Under the pieces are notes generated by a model. It was not told where the DNA came from and ran no database searches. It saw only the letters and a program-made list of their open reading frames with translations. Shown here piece by piece: positions 1 to 63,133 of a DNA stretch of 64,000 nt. Source of the stretch: Apostichopus japonicus (lineage: Eukaryota > Echinodermata > Holothuroidea > Aspidochirotida > Stichopodidae); assembly GCF_037975245.1 (NCBI RefSeq), contig NC_092572.1, forward strand, positions 25,238,489 through 25,302,488, in the 5' to 3' direction. Numbering within the stretch: position 1 is the first letter of the stretch; each line of letters starts with the position of its first letter. Made by a program: the position numbers and the translations under genes.

Positions 1-2250
1 ATCCAATTTATATTTTACGATCGGTCAGCAGAGCGATTTTTATCGGACGACTATCCGATTCGCGCAGTTTTGTCCAAAATAAATAGGATTTATTGTATTG
101 CGACAGCTATGCTATTAGTATTACTATTAGTATTATATTAATACTAGGCCCATATACATTTTGACCTTCATCTTCGGGCCGACCAACAATATTGCATCTG
201 TTTGCTGCTGATCTCAAGCGGAGAACGATACTAAAATTCGACATCACTCGCAACCTTTCATGAAGTAATTATTCTAAGCTTGTGGTTATGGTAGGCAAAG
301 TCACTGTTTTATTGAGGGATTAGTGAAAACTTGTTTTCCAAATTACTCTGCCTAGGAAAGCTGAAATTTATTATTAGTAAATATCAGAGATGGCTGCATT
401 AAAATCCTGTCACGCTTGGTTGATCTACTTTTACGACAAAACGCAGTTAGTGTGATGGTAAAGTGGGCTCTGCAGTTCTTATAATTAGCTTTAATACTAC
501 TAGCCAAGTCAAACTCGAAGTGAAGTTTGTAGCTTTTCGTGGAAGTGACTCTCAGTACATGTTTCAACTGTATATTCTACCCCTAAGAAATACTTAATTT
601 CACCATGACAACCTACAAGCAAGAGCCAATTTCACGAAAAACTACGAAACTACAGTTATTTGCTCTCCAAAATGACCCGTGTGTAGTACAGTATGTACTT
701 ACATATTTGTCAATAAAAGGAAGTTATAGTTTTGTGGTGTTTTAAGGCTTAGGTGTCAGAACTTCGCAGTGTCCATGCTACTACTAGACTAGTAGGCGTA
801 GGGCATAAGACACTAGTAATAGGCCTAGGCCCCTAGCCCTTTCTGTTGTTTTATGTCAGGTAAGATTTTGTGCAGCCAATTCCAACAGGCTAGGCTGGCA
901 GTGCAGGACGCATAAAGCAGGAAAGTCTATGCTCGGTTGACCCAGCGCTTGGAGAGTGTTATCTCTCAAAATACATTTTCAAATAGGCCTACATGTTCTT
1001 GCCAGTGTTATTCTTTGAGCAGAACAGAGGAAAGTATGAGTAAGAATCCAAAAGTGTAATCAGTTTAATAGCTATTGACAGAATTGAAATCTAGTGTAGC
1101 TCCAGAAAAAAAAAGAACAAAAAAGAAAGATAAACTTTTCTACACCACCTCACCACACCTTCCTTCAATTAAGGATAAAGTAAACTTTGTAAATGGTGAT
1201 ATATGACAGTGAAAATAACACAATTTCAACAGTACTTGTATTAAACGTTGCCAAAGCATGATGTCCTCTGCCATGGTACAGAACCAGCTTCTGAATTAAA
1301 ATAATGCTGAAACTTCTCTCTTGTATTAATAGCCTCATGGCTAGCATGGCAACCTTTCATTTGCATGTCTTGCAAACTGACTGCACTCTCCTGAGCATTT
1401 ACAGTCTCATTTGTTTGTGTCATCTGTGCGGACTGTTAAGTTTTCTGTAGAAAGTTGTGCAAGGCACAGGTTGCTTTAATAATTTTATCCACATTCTGTG
1501 GTTGCAGCTTAATTCTCCTCTGGTAGATCCTCCAACGGGCTGCAAGGATTCCGAAGGCATTCTCCACGACCCTCCTGGCCCGTGAAAGGCGATAATTGTA
1601 AATTCTCTTCCCTTCACATAGGTGTTGTCCAGGATAAGACCTCATTAAATTAATTTTTAATGGGAAAGCTTCATCACCCACAGCAACAAAAAGTAGCTTT
1701 CCTATTTCAGGAGCTCCAGGGAGCTGTTGGTATGGAGGTATATTCAGCTCATTGCTGTCCATTTGCCGTCCTATTTGGCTCCTGGCAAAAATCCATCCAT
1801 CACTACATGACCTAAATGCACCAACATCGATTACAGTGAAACAGTAATTGTTGTCTACTATAGCCATGAGAACTACAGAAAAAGTGAGTTTGTAGTTAAA
1901 GAACACAGATCCTGAATTTGGTGGTGACTGGATAACCACATGTTTGCCATCAATTGCACCAATGCAGTTTGGGAATTGCCATCTATTGCGAAATCCTTCG
2001 GCTGTTGTCTCCCAATCCTTTTCCCATTGGAACGGACATGTACAGTGGTTGTAACTTTCTCCAGAGTATTTCGCAAGTCTCCGGAACTATGCCAACTATG
2101 GTGGATTTTCCAACCCTGTAACTATATGCAAACGACTTGTACGAGTTTCCTGTAGCCAAAAACCTACCAATGGATAGACAAAAATACAGAAATTCATTGT
2201 TCTTATTTTGCTACTTTCAAGTAAAATATCTATTTATTCTTTTCAAATAG

Positions 2251-3251
2251 GGGAGGCAGCGCAGAAAAGGTGGATGAACCTTAGAGATGCCCTCAATAAC
2301 TATAATAAAAAGATGAAGGGGCACAAGTCTGGGGACGAATACAGGAAAATAAAAAAATACCGATACGCTGATGTCATGCAGTTCTTATTGCCTTTCCTTA
2401 AACAACGAGAGTAAGTCATTGCTACGCATTAACAAAGAGAAGACCAATAATGATTATTTTTGACTTAATGAATCTGTATTATATTTGTTAACAAGTGTTT
2501 GTAGCTCTCATTTTGTATTTGATTCATGGAAATCTGCAAAGTAGTTAGTAGACTCAGCTTGAAAAACTTCATTAAAGTTCTTGTTAAGGTTATATGTTAT
2601 CACCTTCATGTTTTCTTGCAAAAACCTTGGTTATTAGTTGCAACATTTTCTGTGGTGTTTCAATTTCTATGGAATTGGGTAAAACCAAATTTTAGTTGAA
2701 ATTTGCATGTTGCCAAATATAATAAAAGAACTGTAGGTTGTTAGTTTGGATGGTACGTGGCACAATTATACTCTACTGGTTTGCTTTTCATAATTCCTTT
2801 AATTTTCTAAGGATGATTGTCATTGAATGTTTTATTTTATTTTATGTTATTTTTTAAATTTACATTTAGAACGTGTGGTAACTTGGAGGAAAGCAGATCT
2901 GTGGATCATCTTCCATCAGATACTCAATCCACGTCCAAAGAACTGGATATGGCATTAGAGGAAGCATGTGGGAGTACTTCACCAATCCACTCTCCCTGCA
3001 TTTCATCTCCCAAGGTGCCTACCCGTAAAAGGAAGGAGCAGAATCTGGAGACAGATTTTTTCATCCTTGAATATTTTAAAGAGAAAAGGCAACTTCTGAC
3101 TAAGGAAGATGATATTGATCTCTTCTTTAAATCAATGGCATGCACAGTGCGTAATTTTCCTATGCACCTCCAATCAGAAATTAAATTTGAAATTTATCAG
3201 ATAATTTACAGAGCAGAAATAAAAATGTTAGATCAACCCTCGGAGCCTTGA
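2251..3251 (+). CDS. MADF/BESS domain protein of the Harbinger element (partial gene model)
   Basis: Two exons can be read. The first (2251-2410) follows a TTTTCAAATAG acceptor and encodes EAAQKRWMNLRDALNNY through FLLPFLKQR, the C-terminal half of a MADF (Myb/SANT-like) domain; it ends at GA|GTAAGT. The second (2870-3251) follows CATTTAG, restores the frame as RETCGNLEE, contains a basic stretch (PTRKRKEQ) and ends with a BESS-like segment (DIDLFFKSMACTVRNFP) before a stop. In Harbinger elements a Myb-like partner is known to help import the transposase and bind the element ends; that role is inferred here. The exon for the first half of MADF was not found: it cannot overlap the minus-strand transposase exon and should lie left of 1436. 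The gene sits wholly inside the transposase intron. Confidence 0.75.
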
Positions 3252-11145: not shown

Positions 11146-11345
11146 ATCGGGTGGTTTCAGCAATTTAGCTGAAATTTGGAATCTTTTCAATTTGGAAAGT
11201 CATTTCAGATGGGAAACTGTAGATTGCTCTTGGATAAAAAACCTACCTTATAAGACCCGGCCGGACATTGAAACCCAACCTCAAGATTGTTAAACCACAT
11301 TACTTCATTTGCCAACGACTTTATCCACTCGGTCACAGCATATAG
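11146..11345 (-). repeat. tRNA-derived SINE, copy 2
   Basis: This copy aligns with the SINE at 8285-8482 over the body (CATTTCAGATGGGAAA, GATTGCTCTTGGATAAAAA) and over the tRNA-like head (ACTTTATCCACTCGG on the plus strand). It is more diverged in the B-box region. Confidence 0.6.
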
Positions 11346-12121
11346 GATGTATGGTGCATCCAATAACCATACAATATCCAATAACATCCAAATACCGAGC
11401 TTTTCGGTTGCAATGGTTTGCCTTAATGATTATAAATAATTATTTATGTCTCTTTGATTGTTGTTGAACGTTTGCTTCAATGCTATATGTCACGTTTTTA
11501 TCAACGATTGTAAAACATGTATAAAGATGAAGGATGTAAAGAAGGGATACTATGGTAATGAAGTTGCTTTTGACATAAGTCAAGGTGTATGCAAGTTAAG
11601 GTTACCTCCGCCTTGTAATCGTCATTATTCATCACCCGTCCATTTTCTTGTTGCTGAGAAAAGAAAATTATTTCGTTACTGCCTCTTCAACTTTTGCATT
11701 GTCGCAACCATTGTAATTAACTGATCCCAATGTAAAAGTCACTACAAAGTATTGATATTTTTGTCATATTAATTACTTGTTTAATACTTATTAAAACGTA
11801 TCCATTACATATATATATATTTGACGATAGTCTTAGCTACAAATATTACCTTTTTCGATTCCTGCATATCGTTTAAGCATAAACAGGATATAACAAGTGA
11901 CAGAAAACGTTGTGAAATACCAGTTCCAGGAGCTTAAAATTTATTCTTGAGCCACAATGTTTTTGTTTTCCTAAAAGAATAAACGAATAAACTCTTTGTG
12001 TAAACATCTAAGACAGAAATAGACATCTGTACAAAAAGTTAAAGGTTTTAGACATTTAGGATATTTTTCTAATATATTTGAAGTTTTGAAAAGACGGTGG
12101 AATCATCAATTGTTTACTAAC

Positions 12122-12177
12122 CTTCCATTTGCCATCCTGATCAAGCTGAAACCACTGTGCTGTCGGATTCCATTGAA
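12122..12177 (-). other. Possible isolated exon
   Basis: The minus strand shows TTTAAATAG|TTCAATGG as an acceptor and GGAAG|GTTAGT as a donor around 56 bp. In phase 1 it reads QWNPTAQWFQLDQDGKWK. A second short splice-bounded piece lies near 10756-10781. I cannot link either to a gene, and both may be chance. Confidence 0.2.
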
Positions 12178-12640: not shown

Positions 12641-12828
12641 TCGTATTAAGTATTCAGGTATTCACAGCCCATAGTCTTAAACCGGTCAGAAGTGCAAACA
12701 TATGAAATGAAACACTCAAGCCGTGCAGTGCAAACGTGCGCGATTTCCTTACATACCTTGCAAATTGTAGCGACTAATGGAAATTACCTTATCAATTAAT
12801 GGAACTTACCTAATACTCCCTTCTTTTC

Positions 12829-12949
12829 TAATTCCGTAAATAAACATTCACCGGAATTCTCGGGCAGTAGGCAACATTCGAATCTGTTGTTTGGGTATTG
12901 ACAACAAGTAATGTCAGCGGTTGGCACAAGGCGTATCTCAGTTATTTCT
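12829..12949 (-). CDS. Ig-NACHT receptor, putative last exon
   Basis: The exon reads EITEIRLVPTADITCC then NNRFECCLLPENSGECLLRN and a TAG stop. It joins the previous exon in phase 2. The acceptor (TCATACGAG) is weak. A GTAAGTT sits just past the stop (12810-12805), so the stop might instead be a late mutation in an exon that once spliced onward. Confidence 0.45.
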
Positions 12950-15900
12950 CTCGTATGACACAGATAGGTAACATTATGAAAGCATAGAAGTGTTACTAAT
13001 GATTGGGTTGATGCAAATGTGTATCAACAACTGTGCAACTCCAAACTCCTTGGTTTCAAACGTTTACTATAAATCAAGATGTTTCGCTGCCAAAACAAAT
13101 TTATCAGCAGCCAAATGTTGCATGTAAGAAAAACTGTACAGTTGCTGTTTGAAAATGTTCAGAGCAAATTATGAACGCTAACAAAGATTTAATAGAAGAC
13201 ATTAATTAAAAAAAAATTCTACATTTAAATCGCTCATAGTTCGTCCTGATGGGTTTATCCAATATCCAATGAGCAAATAAGGATACTTACGTTAGTCGCT
13301 CCAAGCCTTCACAAATAACAGAGTACTTAAAAATATCAGTCACTTCGTCATATGTCAATTCCCGTCCTCTCTCGGTAATCTTTAGTTCTTCGACCATTTT
13401 CAATGTTTGCAGTTTTAAACCAGAACTAAGCGTGAGCTTCCTTTTTGAGTAATCAACTGAGTCAACGCATTTTTCCAAGTCTATGCATTTTATGGGAATC
13501 TGTAGAGTAAGCAAGAGATATCATTGTCAATAAAATAATCAAGATACAAGAAAAAGTTCAGTCTTAGCAACATTTAGCATCAAATAACAAAGCGTTTTGC
13601 ATTTCTTTCTCCGCATGTTGTAAAAACATTGGCGTGTTTACTTTTGTGTATATTCTTTATCCAATTTTTATCCCATTCATTATTAACAAGCAGTCAAAAT
13701 TGTAACAAAATGCACCAAAATTGGTTCATGTATGTTTTGAATAGTTATTACCAAAGTAGTCTCATTAGACAGTTAGTTTGTTACATTATGTGGATTTATC
13801 GTTCTGTTTTATTTCAGTACCAATTATGTCACAGTCTCGTTACCCATTAATAATCCCATAAAATAATACACGTTTATCCATACAATGTTGCTTACCAGTA
13901 CTCTGAATGCTATGTCAATCAACTGCATAGTGGATCTCTGCAGCAACCTGCTATGCTCGGAACTGATGTAAATGGTATCAACACATAGCTTTCTAACTGT
14001 TTCCTTAATATTGTCGACAGTTCCACTCTTCTCAAGCAGACAAAGAATGGCTAACTTGTCACCATCTTTCAAAGTGTTCAGATATTCAATAATGAGATCA
14101 GCGGCGTTGGAATTTATTCCACATGCAAAGCGATAAACATATTGCAAGTTAAATGGATCCAGATTCTTAAGGATTTTTCTCAGTTTACTTTCAGACAGGG
14201 ATTTCACTTGTTTAGCTAAATAGTGAGCCGCGTACCATTCGCATACCAAGTTGTGAAAGAATCGTACAACAATCTTGCGGTTAATGACTTCTGAAGAGAG
14301 TTCATCATATTTATCGTCAAAAGACAAAATCTCCTCCTCAATTAATATACCAACTCGCAGGTAATGTTCGTAAAAATCTGTTCCTAGTTTGGAAAGAAAA
14401 TCTGCTTTGCTCCATGAAGTTTTGTGTTTGTCCCCTGTCAACCAATCAAAAGCAGCTTCATCCAGTTGTGAATGGTCTGTCTCATAGATAGAAGTTCTAG
14501 CATTATGGTCGTTGCTATACTTGTTTCGTAGGTGATTATGAAAACATGATATCATGTACCGGAAGAACGACGTGACAGAATCAAATTTCAAATCAGTGCC
14601 TCTTTCGTGCGTTATGTGTGCATACATTACAAACAAAAGAGGTACTTCACAAATGTCACCGTGAATGGGATTCTGTTGGAGACGGTGCAATATGTCGTCA
14701 GCTGCATTTGTATCTCCTGCCACAATCGCTTTCTTAATATAATTTCTCCTGTCCTCGTTATCGAAACCATTCAACCTAATGTATAGTGATGATGATGCAG
14801 CATCCTTTGGTAAACAATGCGTTCTTGTTGTAACAATGACTTGCAGGTTTTGCAACATTGTACGTTCAATGATGGATTTAATGTCACTCTTTAGAAAATT
14901 AGCAAACTCGTCAATTTCGTCGTAGCCATCAAAAATCACTACAGTAGATTTACTTCTACGAATGATAGACTCAATATCTTTAACAGATAGTTCAGAGTCT
15001 ATTGGAAGCAGGAAAAGTTTAATAGCTTCAAATAGTGATTTAATACTCCCTAATTGTCTAAATCGAATGAAAATTACGAATTCTATATCTGTGAGTGGTG
15101 AGTTCACCACACGCTTGCACCAATCGTGAACCAATTGAATACCAAGGGTTGACTTTCCGTAGCCAGGATCTCCAAAGATAACACGCATCTTAGAGTGTTC
15201 CAGATTTTTATTTAATATTTCATGGTACGATTTCAGTCTATTCCAAACTTTGCGGCCCCGTGTACCGGTGGTAGATATCTCTATGGCTCCTTCTACATAC
15301 AAATCGTTAACGCTAAAGAGGTTTTCCTTCATGAAAGGAATGGGACAGACTGTTTGGCAAAGTTTTTCATAGTGTACCCGTAGCTCTTGCAGGAAAACAC
15401 TCTTCTTGGCTAAAAGATGAATGATAGAAAGTCAAACTAGAAATCTTCTTAATGATACATTTGTGTTAGTTGTATCATATATTTGTAACATGTGGTCATC
15501 AACTGCGATATACTAAGATGTTCCAAACAACATGTAACATATATATTTTTTGGAAAAAAAAATTGGAATATGCAACATCATTATTAATTAGAACATATAC
15601 GATGCAATGGACGTTGTCACTTCACGGAGTTCTAGTCTTTTGCAGAAGAATGCACCATTTTTTCAAGATTTGTTTTACCTATACCATTCCAGCAGTATGC
15701 TATCACGTTATTTTGATCCAAGTATGTTGTTGAAAAAGTTGGAAACGTTTGCCGAACTTACATTTGTCAATAGATATTTACGTAACGAAATGTATGCAAA
15801 AGAACGACAAGCTAACCTGACAATTCTTCGTATGATGAATGTTGTGTAATCATGTACTCCATCTGTAGAAAAACAAACCAAATCCAATATAAAGAAAACC

Positions 15901-18900
15901 TCTGCTGGAAGTTTCATTTAAATGTTATCTCTCATTATATCAATATGTTTAAGTTACTTTACAGATCAGAACAAGAGCTGCTTATATAATATAATTTCCA
16001 AAGGATGATTTCATTTAGTCCATGCGGTTTAGGTATTTATAATGAAAACGTTCACCTGCTAAAACGATCAAACTTTATTTGGGAAACGTCAGTATCGATG
16101 CTCTTTGCCATGCAGAAATGAAAGCTTCAGCAAGTCTTAACATTAATGTTTTCCTAGTATACGTTATAGACATAGAATCTGTAGATATATTTTGCCAATA
16201 CTTTGAAGTTCTTAAGATGGATATAGTTTAGTACTAAAACTGGTTTCAATGCTACCACTGTTTACAATTCCCTTGAATACATGAGAAAGCAAAAAAAAGG
16301 TTTCACATCCAAACATAATCTATAAACAGACATTGGCATAATAGCAGCCCAATAAACTTTCAATCCATTGTGTTCCTCTCCCCCGCCACCTTCCCCTTCA
16401 ATAAATATCATTATTTTCCTATGTCCTATTTTTAGAGATCTTGCCCATCACAGTGAGTAATGTCATATACTCTAAGGGCTCTAATAGGGGTTCATTCGTG
16501 AGTTGTTAGTACGATTGAAGTAAATGACGAAATACATCAGATTTAGATCTGAACAACACTTAATCCGGTATCACTATAAGCAACCGTCAGTTTTAATTTA
16601 ATTTTAATTTCATTGAATTATCTCATTTACTTATTCGTTTTTCTTCAATTCTTCCCTTCCTTTTTTTCTCTATTTTCCGCAAAATATCTGCAATTAACCG
16701 ATATCAAATTAATGCACAGACGTTTTCATTTTAACTGGGCTGTTCACAGGTTCGTCGAGATAAAGGCTAAAAATTGATTTAAATGTATTTGAAATTACAT
16801 GACATATGACACTCACCTCCTCATTATGACTTTTTTCGGTGACTTCATTTTGTTTTTGTCTCTTCTTCACTGTATATCAAGAACAACGTTATATATCTTT
16901 AAACGGAACGTCAACAATAAAACTATGATTAACAATTTGTTCTATTTGGTCAATATCAAGCACAAGACCTCGTTGTAGAATATAATTTTGAAACCTGAAA
17001 CGTCAAGGTGAAATCAGTCGAGAATCTGCGTAGATGCTCACATTATTGTTACCATTACAAGGATAAACAACCATATGACTTTCCTACTTTATTGGAATAA
17101 ACATTGCAATTTGTTGTTATGAATTTAGTTACCACGTTCTAGTAAAGTTGATCAAGGGCATTTAAGTTTCAACTTTGTTTTCATAATTTTTAATGACATT
17201 TACCTTGGTAAATAACAATGAAGAGTAACATGATGAGAAGTATGGTACTGCCTAGTCCCACTAGAACTGTGATAAACGGACGTTGATACTTTACAGAATT
17301 TGTTGAGGTCGGTTGCTCTGTATTGATGACTCCCTTTGTATATAAAACAGGATCTTGAAAAAGAAACGAAAGCTAAAGTGATTTCGGTCCTAGTTGGATA
17401 CATGTTAATATAATGTGTGGGTACCCAAAATATGTTGTTTCATGTAACGGCATCAATAATTGATTCAACCTATGGTACTCTAAGTGCCAAAAATTAGATC
17501 TATATTCTAGTTTAGCTTTTACGCATTCCGTGGTGTTTGAAATGGCGAACTGCTGGTATATAGATTTGTTGAATATTTTATATTAACAGTCCTATGTGGG
17601 TTGTTCTAGTTGAAAGATGATCTTTTTGAAATATTATCTCCCAAGACGTCCCCGAGAATACTTTATCACTTTATATATTTAAATACTCTACAAAATACTT
17701 TACTGGATTAGAACTGTTTGTTTTTGAGAAAATGTTCGGCCCTCCGTGATGTTTTCCAATGTATATCTTTTTCCTTCTGCAATTTCATTCCAATCCCTTT
17801 CCTGTATGGTGAACATCATTAAATAATTAAACTGATAGTGACAGTGCTACCTACCACTTATAAGGATCATGTCAAACTTTTTTGACCAGTCCAAAGGAGT
17901 GTCTTCATTTTTATGGGTTCCGCATTCAATTGTGAATCTAGCATCACTGGTACCATGCAATTCATACGTCGCTGTCAGAACGATATCAAATGTCTCCCCT
18001 TTATTAGTTACTTTCAATTTTTCGAAAAAGGACATTTTTCCCTTGTCGCTTGGGTAAAACGCTCTGAATGATAGATCGACAACTGGACTAACGCCAAAGA
18101 GTGAGCAACTCAATGTACCCTCTGTTTGAGCCTCTATAACACAGTATTTTTCCTCGCTGCAGCCATCAACTACAGGATAAGAGGGTTGTGGACTCACTGT
18201 ATAGCAAAGAGGAAAGTATTTGTATTTTATTGTGTAGTTTAACGTTTAGTTCACTTGTACGAAAAGGAAAATGCTTTAAAACCTTTTGCATTAGAATTAA
18301 CTTCTAAACATGGCTAATACTGAGGGAATAAATTGAACCAGATATGATATCAACTGAATATACCTGAAGACATGACATGAACCTGATATGTAACACAAAT
18401 CTCCCTTGTCAAGATCAGATGATCGCAAATGTATTTAGTTTAATGATTAACCCGTTATAACAATCATTGTATCATAATGGTGACGAGGCTTTGTCCTTAA
18501 AGTAATCCACAAAATACCACACTATTAGTTCTTTCCCCTTGTAGACTTAGGACTGTTGTTAATGCAGCTGATATAAATCTTGTACACTATGGAAGTGTTC
18601 GGAACTCTACTGTGTAAAGTTTAAAGGCCTATTATTATCTAAAATAAATATTCCATTTGGGAGTGATTGCTCTCTACTGAAACGAAAGTAAATATCAGGA
18701 CAATACATATTTACCAAATTGTCTACTTAATACGTTTATTTTGCTGATGAAACCATTTCTGCCGTTACAATATTTGCTCAATCAACCGAACCGAATTGTA
18801 CAGTTGCTTATAAAAGCGTATTCGACTTGAATATATTGCGCATTTATATGCATCTGTGTTATAACATGATAACACGTGTTATGCTAGAGGCACATTTTAT

Positions 18901-21022
18901 TGCGGCCTGTGTTAAAAAAATATATATATAAAAATATTAAAAAAATAAAAAATATAATATAATACCACTACGATTTACTGTATTGTATCTTTAACATATC
19001 TAGCTCTAGCATGCTCCCAAAACATAACACGTGTTAGTGTGTTATAACACCCTGGCATATAAAAGCATAATATGCTACACGTTAAGAACAAATATAAGCT
19101 CACACCTTTTCGGCTTGGGTGGCTCAATAACTCACCGTAAATTAGCACGTGATGTAGTGAAGTATATTGTACTGTTCCATCGCTAAAGGAACAAGCATAT
19201 AATCCACTATCTAGTATTTGTGCTTGATTAATCTTCATCGCTCCACCTTCGCTAACTTCAAAGTTTCCAGAAGTAGTAGTTTGCCTGTTTCCTCCAAAAT
19301 ATGTAGCTACTGCATAGTCAGTTGTGACGTATCCCTCCGTGAGTTTCCTCCAAACTAGATGTCTCACGTTACTATTCCCACATTGTAACACTAACTTTGA
19401 GTTTCTTTCAAGTATTGCCTTTTCTTGTTCCATTGTTTCATAATGAAGTACCCCATGCTGTATTATAATTTCTGATTCGTTTTTAACAAGAAGTCCATTA
19501 GCCGAGAAAGCTTTGCAAACAAAAAGTGATAACGATGTCAAATTCCCAAAACCTGTGTTAAGAGTTGAGTATGACGAGAAAGTCAAGGTCTGATGCACTA
19601 TGTCTTCCGTTTGTGTTTTAATGTAACTGTCACCGGTTTCGGTTCTTTTTAGCCATTGTAAACTAACTTTGGGTCTGGCATGTTGAACTGAACAGGTAAT
19701 AACATCGTTTTGCTTTAACTCTGTAAAGCATAACGAAGTGCTGTTCCCACAAATGTCGATCACTGGAAAATCTGGATATGGTGTGACTGTTATAGTGAGG
19801 AATTTGAAAAGGAAATTATGCAACAGGGCTTCTTCATTAGGACATAATTGATACATTACGAAAAACAAAAGAAACAATGTTTGTTAATCATAGGCACTGT
19901 TGTAATAGTTTGATACAAATACAAACACCTTAAATTAGTCGATGTTTGCCATTTTAATTCATTTCTATTTAAATGCTTGGCAATCATGATTACCATGGAT
20001 TGTAGCATACTGCCCATTCTATAAAGACATATTCTAAATACATCTTCTTTACGTAATGGAATCACATTGACTTCAAATAAGCTTCAGAGCACATGCAAAT
20101 GGAAATTATTGTTAGTAATATATAGAAAAGCATTGGAAGGTTAGAATGAATAGGAGAACCATTTTGATAGATAAACAACGAAAACAAATTCTTACCAGTT
20201 ACAACGACATCTATGTAATGTAAGGACGGTTCTGCACCCTCTTGTTCGAACAGTACGGCTACAAATGTATGCTCATGGATAAGAGAAACGGCGTTTATTA
20301 TGAGCGAGCCATCTAATGTGATATTATATTCATCAGATAAGCCTCCATCGTCGATTATGTTGTGCTCCTGAAGTACAGCAATTGGTTTTGTTGTGATATA
20401 ATCTACAGAGTCATACCAGATGACTGAATAAATTTCAGCTCCAAATGAGCAACGTAAGGTGTTCATCTCTCCATACTCGAGATATTGGATGGGTTCACAT
20501 TCATCACCAACTGGGAATGAGATATGAAACTTCAAATGATCTCCTTATTACGTGTCGTTTGATATCAGTATTAAAAATATCAAATTCAGTAAAGTAATTT
20601 GCAAAATTCCATACGCTCAGAAAGTGGTCAATTTCCACCAAAGCAGGTGTTGTTTCAATGTGTAATGGTCATGTCCTTGTTGACATAAATCAACCTATAG
20701 GCTTTTTCAAAAATAAATATAAAGTGCGGTTGTATAACATATTTTAGTTCATTTGTTGTTGATTAGAAAACCAACAATGCACTTGGGACTCACGATAACG
20801 AACAACGAAGGAAGACATAAACATATTCTCAAACACCGCTATATGATCCTAGCCATATATCATGACTGTTAAGGTGCTAGTCACACCAACTGAAGTAACA
20901 CCAACTGCTTTTTGTACCTTCAAGCTCACAATATTTCGATTGTGGTATAAAACCGAATCATACTTACTTGTACATGGAAGAATTAGAATCAACCAAAATA
21001 GCTGCAATATCATTGGACCCAT
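12829..21022 (-). CDS. Ig-like / transmembrane / NACHT fusion receptor, ten exons
   Basis: Exons (minus): 21022-20968 signal peptide; 20510-20196 Ig1; 19762-19136 Ig2 and Ig3; 18169-17855 Ig4; 17353-17204 transmembrane; 16869-16817 and 15862-15817 cytoplasmic linker; 15409-13896 NACHT; 13499-13291; 12949-12829 ending in TAG. All splice phases agree and the total of 3405 nt is an exact multiple of three, giving 1134 residues. The order predicts an Ig ectodomain, one membrane pass near residues 464-486 and a cytosolic P-loop NTPase with Walker A GDPGYGKST (about 600-608) and Walker B VVIFDGYDEID (about 677-687). In NLR proteins NACHT drives nucleotide-dependent oligomerisation; here ligand binding outside could be coupled to it, which is inference. 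No leucine-rich repeats were seen. The last acceptor has a weak pyrimidine tract, and exon 7 has a YEEL motif. Two adjacent genes merged by eye is the main alternative, but the in-phase entry into the pre-NACHT linker argues against it. Confidence 0.8.
13291..13499 (-). CDS. Ig-NACHT receptor exon 9, C-terminal to NACHT
   Basis: After a CTCTACAG acceptor this exon encodes IPIKCIDLEKCVDSVDYSKR through YSVICEGLERL and ends AC|GTAAGT. It has no clear leucine-rich repeat consensus. A similar Cys-rich linker followed by an RGRELTYDEVTDI segment is found after NACHT in some invertebrate NLR-type proteins, as I recall them; this is a weak family resemblance. Confidence 0.7.
13896..15409 (-). CDS. 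Ig-NACHT receptor exon 8: NACHT NTPase domain
   Basis: A single 1514-nt exon encodes the pre-NACHT linker (ELRVHYEKLC, then VCPIPF), Walker A GDPGYGKST, an FIRFRQLGSI strand, Walker B VVIFDGYDEID, a sensor-like IVTTRTHCLP, and the downstream winged-helix/helical region (FFHNLVCEWYAAHYLAKQ). This is the standard order of a NACHT ATPase. The frame is fully open and bounded by TCTTTTAG and CTG|GTAAGC, which suggests a gene under selection. The open frame by itself could be mistaken for a complete gene starting at the ATG at 15332; the in-phase acceptor and the linker upstream of that ATG show it is an internal exon. Confidence 0.9.
15817..15862 (-). CDS. Ig-NACHT receptor exon 7, cytoplasmic YEEL exon
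   Basis: A 46-nt exon between TTTTTCTACAG and CAG|GTTAGC encodes MEYMITQHSSYEELS. SSYEEL fits the S-x-Y-x-x-L pattern of an ITIM. It lies between membrane helix and NACHT, so it is cytosolic in the model. Its size makes it the least certain internal exon, although its phases fit both neighbours. Confidence 0.6.
16817..16869 (-). CDS. Ig-NACHT receptor exon 6, basic stop-transfer linker
   Basis: The 53-nt exon follows GATATACAG and encodes VKKRQKQNEVTEKSHNEE before GTGAGT. The KKRQK cluster directly after the membrane helix is what the positive-inside rule predicts for a type I membrane protein. Confidence 0.7.
17204..17353 (-). CDS. Ig-NACHT receptor exon 5: juxtamembrane stalk and transmembrane helix
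   Basis: The exon follows TTTCTTTTTCAAG and encodes a stalk rich in Thr and Ser (INTEQPTSTNSVKYQRP) and then a 23-residue hydrophobic run beginning FITVLVGLGSTILL and ending FIVIY, before GTAAAT. It has phase 1 at both ends, matching the Ig exons. Confidence 0.8.
17855..18169 (-). CDS. Ig-NACHT receptor exon 4: membrane-proximal Ig-like domain
   Basis: A 315-nt phase 1-1 exon starts VDGCSEEKYCVIEAQ and contains GTLSCSLFG and FTIECGTHK as the likely cysteine pair. The usual core tryptophan appears replaced by Phe (DLSFRAF). Length and phases equal the Ig1 exon, which supports origin by exon duplication. Confidence 0.75.
18846..19060. mobile_element. MITE-like inverted-repeat element in an intron
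   Basis: About 215 bp with terminal inverted repeats of about 40 bp: the left side carries TGTTATAACA and TAACACGTGTTAT, and the reverse complement of the right side carries the same two blocks in the same order. The centre is AT-rich. It lies in the intron between Ig3 and Ig4 of the Ig-NACHT gene. No clear target duplication was fixed, so the superfamily is unknown. Confidence 0.6.
19136..19762 (-). CDS. Ig-NACHT receptor exon 3: two Ig-like domains in one exon
   Basis: The 627-nt phase 1-1 exon encodes two domains. The first runs from VIDICGNST with VITCSVQ, SLQWLKR and LFVCKAF as Cys-Trp-Cys core. The second has LVLQCGNS, HLVWRKL and DSGLYACSF, a textbook Ig core. The donor is G|GTGAGT. 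Three AG acceptors lie within 30 bp; I chose the one giving VIDIC because the Ig1 and Ig4 exons begin the same way. Confidence 0.8.
20196..20510 (-). CDS. Ig-NACHT receptor exon 2: first Ig V-like domain
   Basis: A 315-nt phase 1-1 exon after TCATTCCCAG encodes GDECEPIQYLEYGEMNTL, with RCSFG and VIWYD as Cys and Trp of the core and a SLIINAVSL strand. The distal cysteine position reads HEHTFVAVLF and appears to lack the second Cys, so this domain would not have the canonical disulphide. Confidence 0.75.
20968..21022 (-). CDS. Ig-NACHT receptor exon 1: signal peptide
   Basis: The exon encodes MGPMILQLFWLILILPCT, an 18-residue hydrophobic signal peptide, and ends A|GTAAGT in phase 1, in frame with the first Ig exon. 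No TATA element or transcription start was fixed upstream. Confidence 0.7.
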
Positions 21023-23190: not shown

Positions 23191-23943
23191 GAACATTGCT
23201 CGAAATGTGTGATTAAAATAGTACATGGAGTTAACTTGGTGGACTCTGCCGTGACACTGCATCATCTCACCACTGCTCTCACCTGTTTACGTTCCAGGAA
23301 TTTGTGGGGAACAATAATATAACAATCTTGTTAAAAATGTTAAAAGTAATGTTCGGTTTGCTAGACGTCCCAACACTTGAAGTTAGTTATTCAAAAAATA
23401 CTGCGTAACACATAGCTGACAGAAGTTTGCGCTAAGTATTGATTACATGCTTTAATATCTTGCAAGTGTAGTTGAACATATTGTATCACCCTTAGTTCAC
23501 ATTGCTGACTATTGTCGATTATCTGATCACTACATTTATGAATATATTAAGAAAACATGCATGGGGGAAAGATTATTATATATCCCCTCCCCTCCCCAAA
23601 CAAAAACTTTGAATTGAAGTGTTCATATTCATATATTGACAATGACTTACTGTTTCATAACATAACTGCTCTACTGTGAAAGGAAAATTGTAAGGGATTG
23701 AAATAATATATTGAGAACAAAACTTAATTGTGTATCATATAACAGACAATGTAATGAAAGTTAGTTTACAAGCCTTAAGTGTTATTTTTAAGTTTCAAAG
23801 AAAAGAAAACTTTTAAAATTGGCATGTATTTTATTGTCTATGTAGTTTTAATCTCTTCAGTAAGAACAGAGACAATCGGTTGCAGCTCTGTATTGATAAG
23901 TTTGATATTTGATATTAAGTTTGTCTGGTTACTTCAAAGGGGC

Positions 23944-24265
23944 ATGATGGCTTGTTGCATCTGGAAGTTTTGCGCTTCTCTATTAGCTATACGTGTTGTG
24001 AGCGCTACATATTATAACATGGTCGAACTAAACGATTCGGTACTGTTAACATGTAATAGAGAGCAAAACGTTAGCAGTAAGTGGGAACTCGGAAAAATCA
24101 TGCTTTATTTTAACCAGGCAATCATGAATGAAGAGTTTCGATCAAATACTTTTCTTTTCAATAATTACTCTTTGTTGATATATCCAGTGTCTCTTTTTCA
24201 TGAGGGAAAGTTTATTTGTTCTAGTGGCCCAACTCATCGAGCTGAACACATCATTAATATTTTCG
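23944..24265 (+). CDS. Signal peptide plus Ig V-like exon, orphan
   Basis: From the ATG pair at 23944 the frame encodes MMACCIWKFCASLLAIRVVSA, a signal peptide, then VELNDSVLLTCNRE, SSKWELG and HEGKFICSSG (Cys, Trp, Cys), ending F-G in phase 1 at a perfect G|GTAAGT. The pattern SLLI-x-PVSLFHEGKF resembles SLIINAVSLIHEHTF in the first Ig domain of the minus-strand receptor, so the two are probably paralogous, facing away from each other across about 2.9 kb. The open frame extends 55 codons upstream and past the donor into intron. I found no matching downstream exon on the plus strand, so this may be a relic or the start of a gene with long introns. Confidence 0.55.
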
Positions 24266-25017
24266 GTAAGTGTTTCAAGTACGAAATATTCTTCTTTTGT
24301 CGTGTTATGTACCTACCATTAATTATAAAACTAAATTCATACTATAATGAGAGAGTTTTAATTAGTTTGAATATTAAAATTGTAAAATAAAATTATGCTG
24401 ATAACGAGAACATAATATACTTATATTTCATCATCGCCGGCTCATGATGTGGTGCCAGTCACAAGCCGCATATCACTCCAGTTGCACTCAATATAAACCG
24501 TAGGAATGCCTTCCAAGAGAAATAAACAGTTCGCTCCAGAAGAGAGCTTAAAATACGAGCTACTTATGAATGCATTCCTTCTGGCATGTCAATACTATTC
24601 AGGTGCATTAACGAAACGTTAAAGCTGTTAAAGCATTCCAAAACTTCAATGGTCATTATTATTACCCATGGACATTGTAATGCACACTCATTTTAAAAAT
24701 TTTAAGGATATGATTATCTGTTTTGGTGAATTAATATTAGTCAATAGTTATATAAAAGATAATAAAGATTTAATAATCATCAGTCAATTTCAGCGCCTTG
24801 CTGAGTTGCATAACTCTTTCGATACTTGTGACACTGCTGGTAACACTTTAAAATATGTAATCAAGTACATTAAACAATTTGTTAATGAATAATCTCAGAG
24901 TTAAAGTTTTTTCACATATGATCGCACTTAATTGGATTTCGAAAGCCTCTTTATACATACAACTGGTTTTTTTTTTACTCTGCTATGCTGGCAAGGCATA
25001 AGTTCACCGCGTAGTAA
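24266..25017. other. No gene seen
   Basis: Mostly AT-rich sequence. A 74-codon open frame at 24668-24892 has no recognised domain. Confidence 0.4.
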
Positions 25018-29212: not shown

Positions 29213-30855
29213 GCTAAAGTGGTCCCCATCTTTAAGAAAGGTCATCCAAAAAGCTTAGTTAACTATCGACCACTTTCTGTTTTACCATGTTTTTCGAAAA
29301 TTCTGGAACGTATTATTTACAACAGGCTCTCAATTTTTTAGACAGGCATAGCATTCTTTTCAAAGGTCGGTATGGTTTCCGGCCTGGTTTCTCCACCAAA
29401 ATGGCGCTTTAGGATGCCGTTGACAATTTAACACAAGCTATAAACAAACAACATACATCCATTGGTGTATTTCTTAACTTATCCAAGGCTTTTGATACTA
29501 TAGATCATACCATACTTTGTCATAAATTAAATCATTACGGTATGAGGGGCTCATTCCTCGATTGGTTTGTTAACTATCTTTCGAACAGAAAACAATTAAC
29601 TTTTTATCCGGGCAAAAGTTCTGATGTTTTAAATATACAGTGTGGCCACACTGTATATTTAAAACATCAGAGTTTTTACCCTGATAAAATAATAAAAAGA
29701 AGGAGTCCAAGGATAGAACCTTGGTTCTACAAGGCTGGTTGTCATGTGCGAGGTTCTATTCTTGGACTCTTCCTTTTTATTATTTATATGAATGATATTG
29801 GTAAAATCTCCTCCAAAGCTTCTATGGTGTTGCTTGCCGATGATACAAATATTTTCTTTTCTGATTACAATTATGAACGTCTGCAACAAACCCTTCGTAA
29901 TGATTTATGTACTTTCACAGATTGGTTTGCAGCAAATAAGCTTTCCCTCAATATTGATAAAACAAACCATATCGTCTTCAATGCAAATAGAGATATGGCT
30001 AACTTTAATAATTATGTCAATGGTAAACCACTGCAAAAGGTTGATTTCGTAAAATTCTTAGGTGTTTCATAGACTCCAAGCTCACTTGGCGTGAGCACAT
30101 TAGCCATACGTTTAGCCAAACGTTCTAAGGTCTCTTTACCAAACACTAGTACTACCATATTTGACTTATTGTTGTATCATTTGGTCTGGCACAAGTAATA
30201 ACTTCTTGAAAAAGCTAACTATTTTACAGAAAAAAGCAATCAGACATATTACTCTCTCTCACCCGAGGGATCACTCAAACGTGTTATTTAAAGTAAATGA
30301 ATTTACTGAAACTCACTGACCTGTTCTGTCTAAATGTTCTAACTTTAGTTTATCGTTCAATACACGAAATGCTACCAAATATTCTGAATACCTTCTTTAC
30401 ACAGAACTCGAGCATCCACGCTCAAGGCTATGTCACAACAGTACCTCTAAAAATAGCTTACATCATCGGGTCATCACACTCTGGGATCCCCTACCATTCA
30501 TTTTAAAGGCGATGCCTTCTTTTGTTGCTTTTAGAAAAAGCTTACAAAAAGCACTTCATCAACATGTACTAGAACTGCGAGTTGTTTTGTCTACTACTCA
30601 ATTATTGCTTGCACTTGATATATCTGGGAGGGAAGGTGGGGGTTGGAGTGAGGAAAGGGAAGGGAGAGGAAGGGGTGGTTCTGTTTTTGTTTGCTCTTTT
30701 CTAATGGTAAAGTTCTGTATTTTTTCTTTCAGGGAGTGTCACTACCCGACAAGCCCAATAGGGTATTTTAGTACAAGTTTTGTTTCTCCCTCTGTTTTAT
30801 ATGTCATTCTTATGTTGTGATAGAACAAAAATAAATGAAATGAAATGAAAATGAA
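29213..30855 (+). pseudogene. CR1/Jockey-like LINE reverse transcriptase, 5'-truncated and broken
   Basis: On the plus strand the order is VPIFKKGHPKSLVNYRPLSV, FSKILERIIYNRL, YGFRPGFST, LNLSKAFDTIDH (RT box A-like), RGSILGLFLFIIYMNDI, LLADDTNIFF (catalytic Asp pair), NKLSLNIDKTNHIVF, and a C-terminal PYHSF, MPSFVAFRKSLQKALHQ part, then a TGAAATGAAATGAAAATGAA tail. Several frameshifts and stops are present. A fold-back duplication at 29601-29785 interrupts the RT core just before the GSILG motif. It cannot encode working protein. Confidence 0.85.
29601..29785. repeat. Fold-back inverted repeats inside the LINE
   Basis: A near-perfect palindrome is centred between 29645 and 29646 (arms of at least 26 bp identical, similarity to about 45 bp). 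A second inverted pair follows: 29685-29719 is the near reverse complement of 29749-29785, with a short loop. The structure is an inverted duplication of flanking LINE sequence. Confidence 0.8.
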
Positions 30856-33086: not shown

Positions 33087-59652
<26,566 letters not shown>

Positions 59653-62539: not shown

Positions 62540-62959
62540 CTACTGGAATCGCCCGAAGATGCGGCGTCTGTAATCCGAGGAACCAACGAACTTCTCTGCT
62601 AACTCCTCAGGCTTCAACTGGGCTAGACGTTCGCGGTGAATATGGCACACCATCACATGGTTCAGCCTCTGTTGAGTCATGGTGCTCTGTAGCCTTGTCT
62701 TCAAACGCCTCAAAGCACTAAAAGATTTCTCAGCTTCCGTCGAACTGGCGGAGGAGACGAGGAGCAACCGCAAGAAAGCTTCGACTTCACCAAACATAGC
62801 CCGTACCGCTGGATATATCGACTTGAATATTTGTCTATACCCTTCAACCGACGACGAATGGAACTGGCCTCGAAAGAAAGGCAGACTAAGCTCAATATTG
62901 TTGGAGAGCTCAGAGTACCAACTCACGAGATCTGGGTGGAATTCTCCATTCAGCAACAT
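62540..62959 (-). pseudogene. hAT transposase, C-terminal fragment
   Basis: Encodes 139 residues ending with the hAT dimerisation region: LRLLLVSSASSTEAEKSFSA, then LRRLKTRLQSTMTQQRLNHV and MVCHIHRERL. This is typical of ZMYM/P52rIPK-like hAT transposases. The zinc finger and most of the RNase H-like core, which should lie N-terminal, are absent because the right end of the element follows 166 bp upstream. Internal deletion explains this better than truncation, since both ends are intact. Confidence 0.85.
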
Positions 62960-63133
62960 TGAGTGATATTCGATGATATGAATCCTGAGATGTGTAAGCC
63001 CTAACCAAATAGGGCCACGACACTACTCTTTTTCCAAACGTGTGGGGGCATTTGATATTGTTTTCCCCACCCATCGAAATGTGGGGGGCGTGTCCCCCCG
63101 TCCTCCCCCTGGGTTGACGCCCATGACCCTATC

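What the first reader, a model, noticed from the sequence alone, without database searches (positions are those of the whole stretch)
12829..21022. A single gene model joins an Ig ectodomain, a transmembrane helix and a cytosolic NACHT domain
Ten exons with matching phases run from a signal peptide through four Ig-like domains and a membrane helix into a pre-NACHT linker and a complete NACHT ATPase. Vertebrate NLRs are cytosolic; a membrane Ig receptor wired directly to a NACHT switch would be a one-protein sensor and oligomerisation engine. I am not aware of a characterised protein with this order. The exact multiple-of-three total and the in-phase linker upstream of the first ATG of the NACHT frame argue that it is one gene.
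Basis: partly seen in the sequence, partly recalled or inferred. Interest (0 to 1): 0.9.

Follow-up and report, generated by a model that had tools for sequence, protein, structure and literature searches.

The report
Sea cucumber membrane Ig–NACHT receptor gene
This is a real single gene for a cell-surface immunoglobulin receptor with an NLR-type NACHT motor inside the cell; it belongs to a sea cucumber receptor type that has already been studied in the laboratory, so it is a new member rather than a new kind.

Summary
The joined gene is real. The start, the three named junctions and nine exons fit, with AG/GT ends and matching phases. The 3' end is wrong: exon 10 stays open to 12810 and two more exons follow; the model is 12 exons, 1164 aa, stop at 11941. 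Deposited sea cucumber proteins follow the same order: A. japonicus BSL78_11533 (60% identity), Holothuria leucospilota (34%), and a 1215-aa frame on a 4162-nt contig that leaves little room for introns. In the window's genome 34 of 106 scored NACHT places (487 candidates) have a scored Ig exon of this type upstream on the same strand, none downstream. Models of relatives show four Ig domains and an NLRC4/NOD2-like module. The architecture is already described: AjNLRC4 of A. japonicus (PMC8699970) is a membrane protein with Ig outside and NACHT inside that binds Vibrio, dimerises and drives phagocytosis. Most likely this gene is a paralogue working alike: Ig domains bind outside, NACHT modules gather inside, uptake follows. 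I add the exon structure, corrected ends, a family survey and arguments for single-pass topology.

The parts
20968..21022 (-). Exon 1: start codon and signal peptide (MGPMILQLFWLILILPCT), phase 1 out
20196..20510 (-). Exon 2: Ig domain 1 (by eye without the usual second core cysteine), phase 1-1
   Evidence: no Pfam hit on its own
19136..19786 (-). Exon 3: Ig domains 2 (C2-type) and 3 (V-type), phase 1-1
   Evidence: C2-set_2 4.7e-5, over cut-off; V-set 3.3e-5, just under cut-off
17855..18196 (-). Exon 4: Ig domain 4 (C2-type by homology), phase 1-1
   Evidence: no Pfam hit on its own, but C2-set_2 8.8e-7 in the H. leucospilota relative
17204..17353 (-). Exon 5: stalk and membrane helix (model residues 484-502, hydropathy 2.94), phase 1-1
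16817..16869 (-). Exon 6: basic juxtamembrane linker KKRQKQNEVTEKSHNEE
   Evidence: similar segment in P0009; basic side of the helix
15817..15862 (-). Exon 7: linker MEYMITQHSSYEELS
   Evidence: similar segment in P0001 and P0009
13896..15409 (-). Exon 8: pre-NACHT segment, NACHT (Walker A GDPGYGKS at residue 617, Walker B VVIFDGYDE at 694), helical regions after it
   Evidence: (PF05729 1.6e-16); fold of the relative P0001
13291..13499 (-). Exon 9: C-terminal region
12810..12883 (-). Exon 10: C-terminal region (corrected frame and end)
12122..12177 (-).
11941..11970 (-).
   Evidence: weaker than the rest because in BSL78_11531 the frame runs on past this stop

Best explanation
One 12-exon gene (21022 to 11941, minus strand) encodes a 1164-residue single-pass type I membrane receptor of a sea cucumber, most likely Apostichopus japonicus or a very close relative. 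The ectodomain is four Ig domains, probably two V-C pairs; a membrane helix and a basic linker lead into an NLR-type nucleotide-binding module in the cytosol, with no CARD, death domain or LRR array found. It is one of a large, partly clustered family of the AjNLRC4 type. Shown here: gene structure, architecture, homology, family. Inferred: the Ig pairs bind microbial surfaces or a partner; binding clusters receptors; the NACHT modules, brought close under the membrane, exchange nucleotide and assemble, and recruit actin regulators for phagocytosis, as reported for the intracellular part of AjNLRC4. The nucleotide-switch step is inference from the NLR fold. The confidence given is for the gene, architecture and family; for the full mechanism I would give about 0.45.
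Against: No RNA reads were available, so no junction of this very gene was seen in a transcript. The halves exist separately elsewhere: NACHT-only P0006 and P0003 with short N-termini of their own, Ig-TM P0010 on a 2338-nt contig. P0009, a 95% identical A. japonicus gene model over residues 1-201, lacks much of Ig2-Ig3, the membrane exon and about 40 residues at the start of exon 8. The AjNLRC4 sequence itself (MN607598) could not be compared, only peptides encoded by two published primers. The P0001 model has low confidence in the ectodomain. 72 of 106 NACHT places had no scored ectodomain exon upstream, and 4 of 14 fetched NACHT places showed none.
Confidence: 0.87

Rival explanations
1. Two adjacent genes: an Ig-TM receptor ending after exon 5 and a cytosolic NACHT-only NLR starting near 15409, wrongly joined.
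For: Both halves exist alone elsewhere: P0010 (515 aa, Ig-TM with a short tail), and NACHT-only P0006 and P0003, whose match to the model begins at residues 9 and 7, so they have short N-termini of their own. BSL78_11531 is annotated as a NACHT-only protein. In L005, L007 and L009 a Met lies 1, 3 and 15 residues into exon 8.
Against: Three full-length collinear relatives, one on a contig with little room for introns; 34 of 106 NACHT places keep an ectodomain exon upstream, none downstream; linker exons 6-7 have counterparts in P0001 and P0009; in the window, L001 and L003 the first Met of exon 8 comes only 25, 41 and 32 residues in, after the conserved PxPF motif.
Confidence: 0.05
2. One gene with several splice forms: exons 2-5 are all symmetric (phase 1-1), so skipping exon 5 keeps the frame and gives a soluble or cytosolic Ig-NACHT protein, and stopping early gives a decoy Ig-TM receptor. 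Not exclusive with the main explanation.
For: Phases; P0009 lacks the membrane exon yet continues in frame from Ig4 into exons 6 and 7; P0010 is Ig-TM only.
Against: P0009 is a gene model with other faults (gaps in Ig2-Ig3 and in exon 8, C-terminus cut short); P0010 comes from a different, 31% identical gene. No transcript was seen.
Confidence: 0.3
3. Reversed topology, NACHT outside and Ig inside, as claimed for AjNLR-new (PMC13133943).
For: That paper's TMHMM prediction, surface binding of its recombinant NACHT, and antibody blocking (section 4 read).
Against: Signal-peptide-like N-terminus, twelve invariant ectodomain cysteines, basic residues on the NACHT side of the window's helix (5 against 2), sequons above expectation outside only in the sum of four related proteins (28 against 15.5 expected; inside 13 against 13.6; the window alone 4 against 3.6 and 0 against 3.9), and an NLRC4-like nucleotide-binding module, which belongs in the cytosol (inference). 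The second helix reported for AjNLRC4 at 776-795 lies near where this family has NPI..DICEVPLLFVMYAHITHE, also present in NACHT-only P0006 and P0003, so it is probably a buried NLR helix (inference).
Confidence: 0.03

Closest known systems
AjNLRC4 of Apostichopus japonicus (PLoS Pathog 2021, PMC8699970; PLoS Pathog 2025, PMC11932488)
   Same: Same order and spacing: Ig domains 31-132 and 251-353, membrane helix 483-503, NACHT 600-757; described as lacking CARD and LRR. Window model: helix 484-502, Walker A at 617. Peptides encoded by two primers, GTPQYLEL and AFPVVSGC, resemble the Ig1 and Ig4 starts of the window protein (IQYLEY, YPVVDGC).
   Different: A different gene (four primers have 8 or more mismatches to the window). 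I see four Ig domains and one membrane helix; the paper names two Ig domains and two helices.
AjNLR-new of A. japonicus (J Biol Chem 2026, PMC13133943, PIK48001.1, 1197 aa)
   Same: Ig, TM and NACHT in one protein.
   Different: Reported with the opposite topology; its sequence was not compared here.
BSL78_11533, BSL78_11531 and 'putative NLRC4' models of A. japonicus; 'NLRP14' of Holothuria leucospilota
   Same: Homologous over all or part of the protein (60%, 92%, 95% and 34-35% identity).
   Different: Deposited gene models; 11531 lacks the Ig part; the names with CARD, LRR or PYD do not describe the architecture.
Chiridota heheva NLRs (Commun Biol 2022, PMC8913654)
   Same: Some NLRs with an Ig V-set domain in another sea cucumber order (passages).
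   Different: In the passages seen they are only counted among 6 NLRs with other domains; a membrane helix is not stated.
Sponge NLRs with transmembrane segments (Front Immunol 2026, PMC12909245)
   Same: Putative membrane-bound NLRs (passages).
   Different: No Ig domain with NACHT mentioned in the passages seen.
Vertebrate NLRC4, NOD2, NLRP3
   Same: Fold of the NACHT and following helical module, on the model of P0001.
   Different: Those are cytosolic, with CARD or PYD and LRR (recalled).

Membership tests
AjNLRC4-type Ig-TM-NACHT receptors of sea cucumbers | N-terminal signal and Ig ectodomain, one helix near residue 490, NACHT near 600-760 | tested here: met
AjNLRC4-type Ig-TM-NACHT receptors of sea cucumbers | Full-length homology to a deposited member with Ig and NACHT | tested here: met
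   P0001 60% over residues 21-1112; P0005 35% over 21-1119
AjNLRC4-type Ig-TM-NACHT receptors of sea cucumbers | Homology to AjNLRC4 itself | tested here: inconclusive
   only peptides from two primers compared; the genome search for the primers did not complete
AjNLRC4-type Ig-TM-NACHT receptors of sea cucumbers | No CARD, no LRR | tested here: met
   no such Pfam family up to E = 1 for model residues 1-1111 or up to 0.1 in P0004 and P0005 whole; residues 1112-1164 not scanned
AjNLRC4-type Ig-TM-NACHT receptors of sea cucumbers | Plasma-membrane location, microbe binding, phagocytosis | not testable with these tools
   reported for AjNLRC4
Canonical animal NLR | NACHT with Walker A and B, NLR fold | tested here: met
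   fold tested on the relative P0001
Canonical animal NLR | C-terminal LRR array | tested here: not met
   no LRR hit (a weak FNIP repeat at 0.065, under cut-off, in P0006); only about 120 residues follow exon 8, of which the last 53 were not scanned
Canonical animal NLR | N-terminal CARD, PYD or death domain | tested here: not met
   Ig domains instead
Canonical animal NLR | Cytosolic, no membrane helix | tested here: not met
   predicted helix only

The most novel reading that the evidence does not exclude
Sea cucumbers have turned the NLR into a large repertoire of cell-surface receptors: dozens of four-Ig ectodomains, each wired through one membrane helix directly to its own NOD module, so that extracellular recognition drives NACHT assembly at the plasma membrane without adaptor proteins, with possible soluble and decoy forms made by skipping symmetric exons.
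Probability: 0.35. Interest if true: 0.65.

Novelty: new member of a known kind. Interest (0 to 1): 0.4.

Why it matters
It supports at gene level that an Ig receptor and an NLR motor are one protein in sea cucumbers, and suggests that the published AjNLRC4 is one of many. A repertoire of this size with a shared exon layout offers a way to test whether NLR switches can be driven from outside the cell. The comparison also questions two published topology points: the second membrane helix of AjNLRC4 and the extracellular NACHT of AjNLR-new.

Tried and rejected
Last exon ending at 12829: rejected. Two-gene reading: judged unlikely, not excluded. Second copy of this gene in the window: none at E 1e-4 by tblastn with seven proteins. 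AlphaFold of P0001 with six rows: NACHT half usable, ectodomain not (mean pLDDT 51.5); the ectodomain was then modelled from P0010 with eight rows (pLDDT 76.8), a 31% relative, not the window protein. The profile search with alignment A1 returned only two proteins, the candidates having been cut to those sharing most words. The P0005 part crashed and was not repeated. Species: inferred A. japonicus or near from contig lengths (C16 46,036,110 against 46,042,199 for the contig of P0003; C17 37,194,397 against 37,207,079 for that of P0006) and 92-95% protein identities; not proven. Family counts are lower bounds: 106 of 487 NACHT candidates and 96 of 650 ectodomain candidates were scored, and two fetched NACHT places with an Ig4-like exon (L014 on C7, L018 on C21) are not among the 34.

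Literature: searches. Seen of PMC8699970: abstract, passages, section 31; of PMC13133943: abstract with the start of the introduction, passages, section 4; passages only of PMC11932488, PMC8913654, PMC11508797, PMC12909245; all others only as listings. I did not see the exon structure or a family count of these genes in those passages; that is no proof that they are unpublished.
Full report
The sequence. On the minus strand nine exons from 21022 to 13291 have AG/GT ends; the running phase is 1 after each of exons 1-5, then 0, 1, 0 and 2. The product begins with a signal-peptide-like stretch and has one strong membrane helix at residues 484-502 and Walker motifs at 617 and 694. Pfam finds NACHT at 1.6e-16 and C2-set_2 just over its cut-off, with a sub-threshold V-set; exon 3 alone gives C2-set_2 4.7e-5 and V-set 3.3e-5, the latter just under its cut-off, while exons 2 and 4 give no Pfam hit by themselves.

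The 3' end. The frame that the model needs is open to 12810. BSL78_11531 continues in the same frame and matches model residues 612-1164 at 92%, through 12177-12122 and 11970-11941. In BSL78_11531 the frame runs on beyond the TAA seen here, so the last exon is the least certain part. The corrected coding length is 3495 nt with the stop, 1164 residues.

One gene. Of seven proteins found with the nine-exon model, three cover Ig and NACHT: P0001 (BSL78_11533, A. japonicus), P0004 (unnamed source, 1215 aa on a 4162-nt contig, so most likely from cDNA; inference) and P0005 (H. leucospilota). tblastn puts P0001's matches on exons 2, 3, 4, 5, 8 and 9 in order. P0009, 95% identical over residues 1-201, runs from Ig4 through counterparts of exons 6 and 7 into the NACHT, but lacks much of Ig2-Ig3, the membrane exon and about 40 residues at the start of exon 8. 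Against the joined reading stand P0010, an Ig-membrane protein of 515 aa without NACHT, and NACHT-only P0006 and P0003, which have short N-termini of their own. The first Met of exon 8 comes 25 residues in for the window, and 41, 32, 1, 3 and 15 residues in for L001, L003, L005, L007 and L009, so missing start codons argue against a separate NACHT gene in some copies only.

The family. The window is C12:25238489-25302488 of a 671.6-Mb genome. Twenty regions were fetched, chosen by me, not at random, covering 14 NACHT places other than the window's. The five C12 neighbours at 24.77-25.16 Mb match Ig1, Ig2-3, Ig4, NACHT and exon 9 in order; three C16 places match Ig2-3, Ig4 and NACHT, two of them with an Ig1 match further upstream; two places (C7, C21) match Ig4 and NACHT only; four (L015, L016, L017, L020) match NACHT only. 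So 10 of 14 have at least Ig4. A membrane exon candidate sits between Ig4 and NACHT in 10 of 10. With cut-offs set after seeing these, 0 of 400 random window segments and 0 of 90 locus segments pass; on hydropathy alone 21 of 400 pass. From coordinates alone, 34 of 106 scored NACHT places have a scored ectodomain exon within 12 kb upstream on the same strand, 0 downstream, 0 on the other strand; 72 NACHT places and 45 ectodomain hits are unpaired, in part because both lists are capped. With the window's phases imposed, splice sites could be placed for 24 of 25 exons in the five neighbours. In the close pair L005/L007 dN/dS is 0.40, 0.36, 0.24 and 0.12 for E2, E3, E8 and E9 (E2 rests on few changes; L007 exon 4 could not be delimited); in the three more distant pairs dS is saturated or undefined for 10 of 15 exon comparisons and large (1.7-2.8) for the other five.

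Topology. Twelve cysteines of the ectodomain are invariant in four proteins. Basic residues inside against outside the helix: 5/1, 3/3, 4/3, 5/2 for P0001, P0004, P0005 and the window. Sequons over the four related proteins: 28 outside against 15.5 expected from composition, 13 inside against 13.6; the window alone has 4 against 3.6 and 0 against 3.9. The hydrophobic segment NPI..DICEVPLLFVMYAHITHE occurs also in NACHT-only P0006 and P0003, so the second membrane helix reported for AjNLRC4 is probably a buried helix (inference).

Known work. AjNLRC4 (PMC8699970; abstract, passages and section 31 read) is described as a membrane receptor with Ig domains at 31-132 and 251-353, helices at 483-503 and 776-795 and NACHT at 600-757; it binds microbes by its Ig part, dimerises and is internalised on Vibrio challenge, and its intracellular part binds actin. 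PMC11932488 (passages) reports that its Ig domains bind caspase-1 after internalisation, which is hard to square with an extracellular Ig part. PMC13133943 (abstract, passages, section 4) reports AjNLR-new with the opposite topology. PMC8913654 (passages) reports NLRs with Ig V-set in Chiridota heheva, and PMC12909245 (passages) membrane-bound NLRs in sponges. Two AjNLRC4 primers encode GTPQYLEL and AFPVVSGC, resembling the Ig1 and Ig4 starts of this family. So the kind is known, and this gene is a new member.

Mechanism. Most likely ligand binding by the Ig domains gathers receptors, and the tethered NACHT modules then assemble and recruit partners for engulfment. Shown: architecture, family, constraint in one gene pair. 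Inferred from AjNLRC4: ligand class, dimerisation, phagocytosis. Inferred from fold: nucleotide switch. Exons 2-5 are all symmetric, so exon skipping could make soluble or shortened forms without frame loss.

Noticed in passing
window 34327-34686 (-): An open frame with a ZU5 domain (PF00791, 5.1e-14), part of another gene; NACHT-ZU5 proteins occur in early animals (passage).
   Followed up: partly
window 23779-24387 (+): An open frame on the other strand, head to head with the receptor gene, that looks by eye like a signal segment plus a V-type Ig exon; no Pfam hit up to 0.1.
   Followed up: partly
window 1439-2086 (-), 2817-3248 (+), 29413-30069 (+), 62543-63022 (-): Transposon remains or related genes: DDE_Tnp_4 (1.6e-29), BESS motif (6.2e-7), reverse transcriptase (6.1e-14), weak hAT dimerisation region (0.0011, under the cut-off).
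   Followed up: partly
window 54729-55240 (-): Long simple repeat that gives open frames of repeated Tyr-Ile.
   Followed up: no
window 11211-11456 (-): A segment matching the extra C-terminus of BSL78_11531 (82% over 82 columns), past the stop of the present model; unclear whether coding.
   Followed up: partly
P0003: An A. japonicus protein with two NACHT modules in a row; both match exon 8.
   Followed up: no
G000 C12 27.6-34.1 Mb and C7 3.1-12.3 Mb: Two further large groups of NACHT places with no scored ectodomain exon upstream in the capped lists. Of those fetched, L016 and L017 (C12) show NACHT only, but L014 (C7) has an Ig4-like exon and a membrane exon candidate.
   Followed up: partly
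G000 C12:25115122-25116506 (-): Ectodomain exons (Ig2-3 and Ig4) between the fetched neighbours with no scored NACHT within 12 kb; perhaps a broken copy or an Ig-only one.
   Followed up: no
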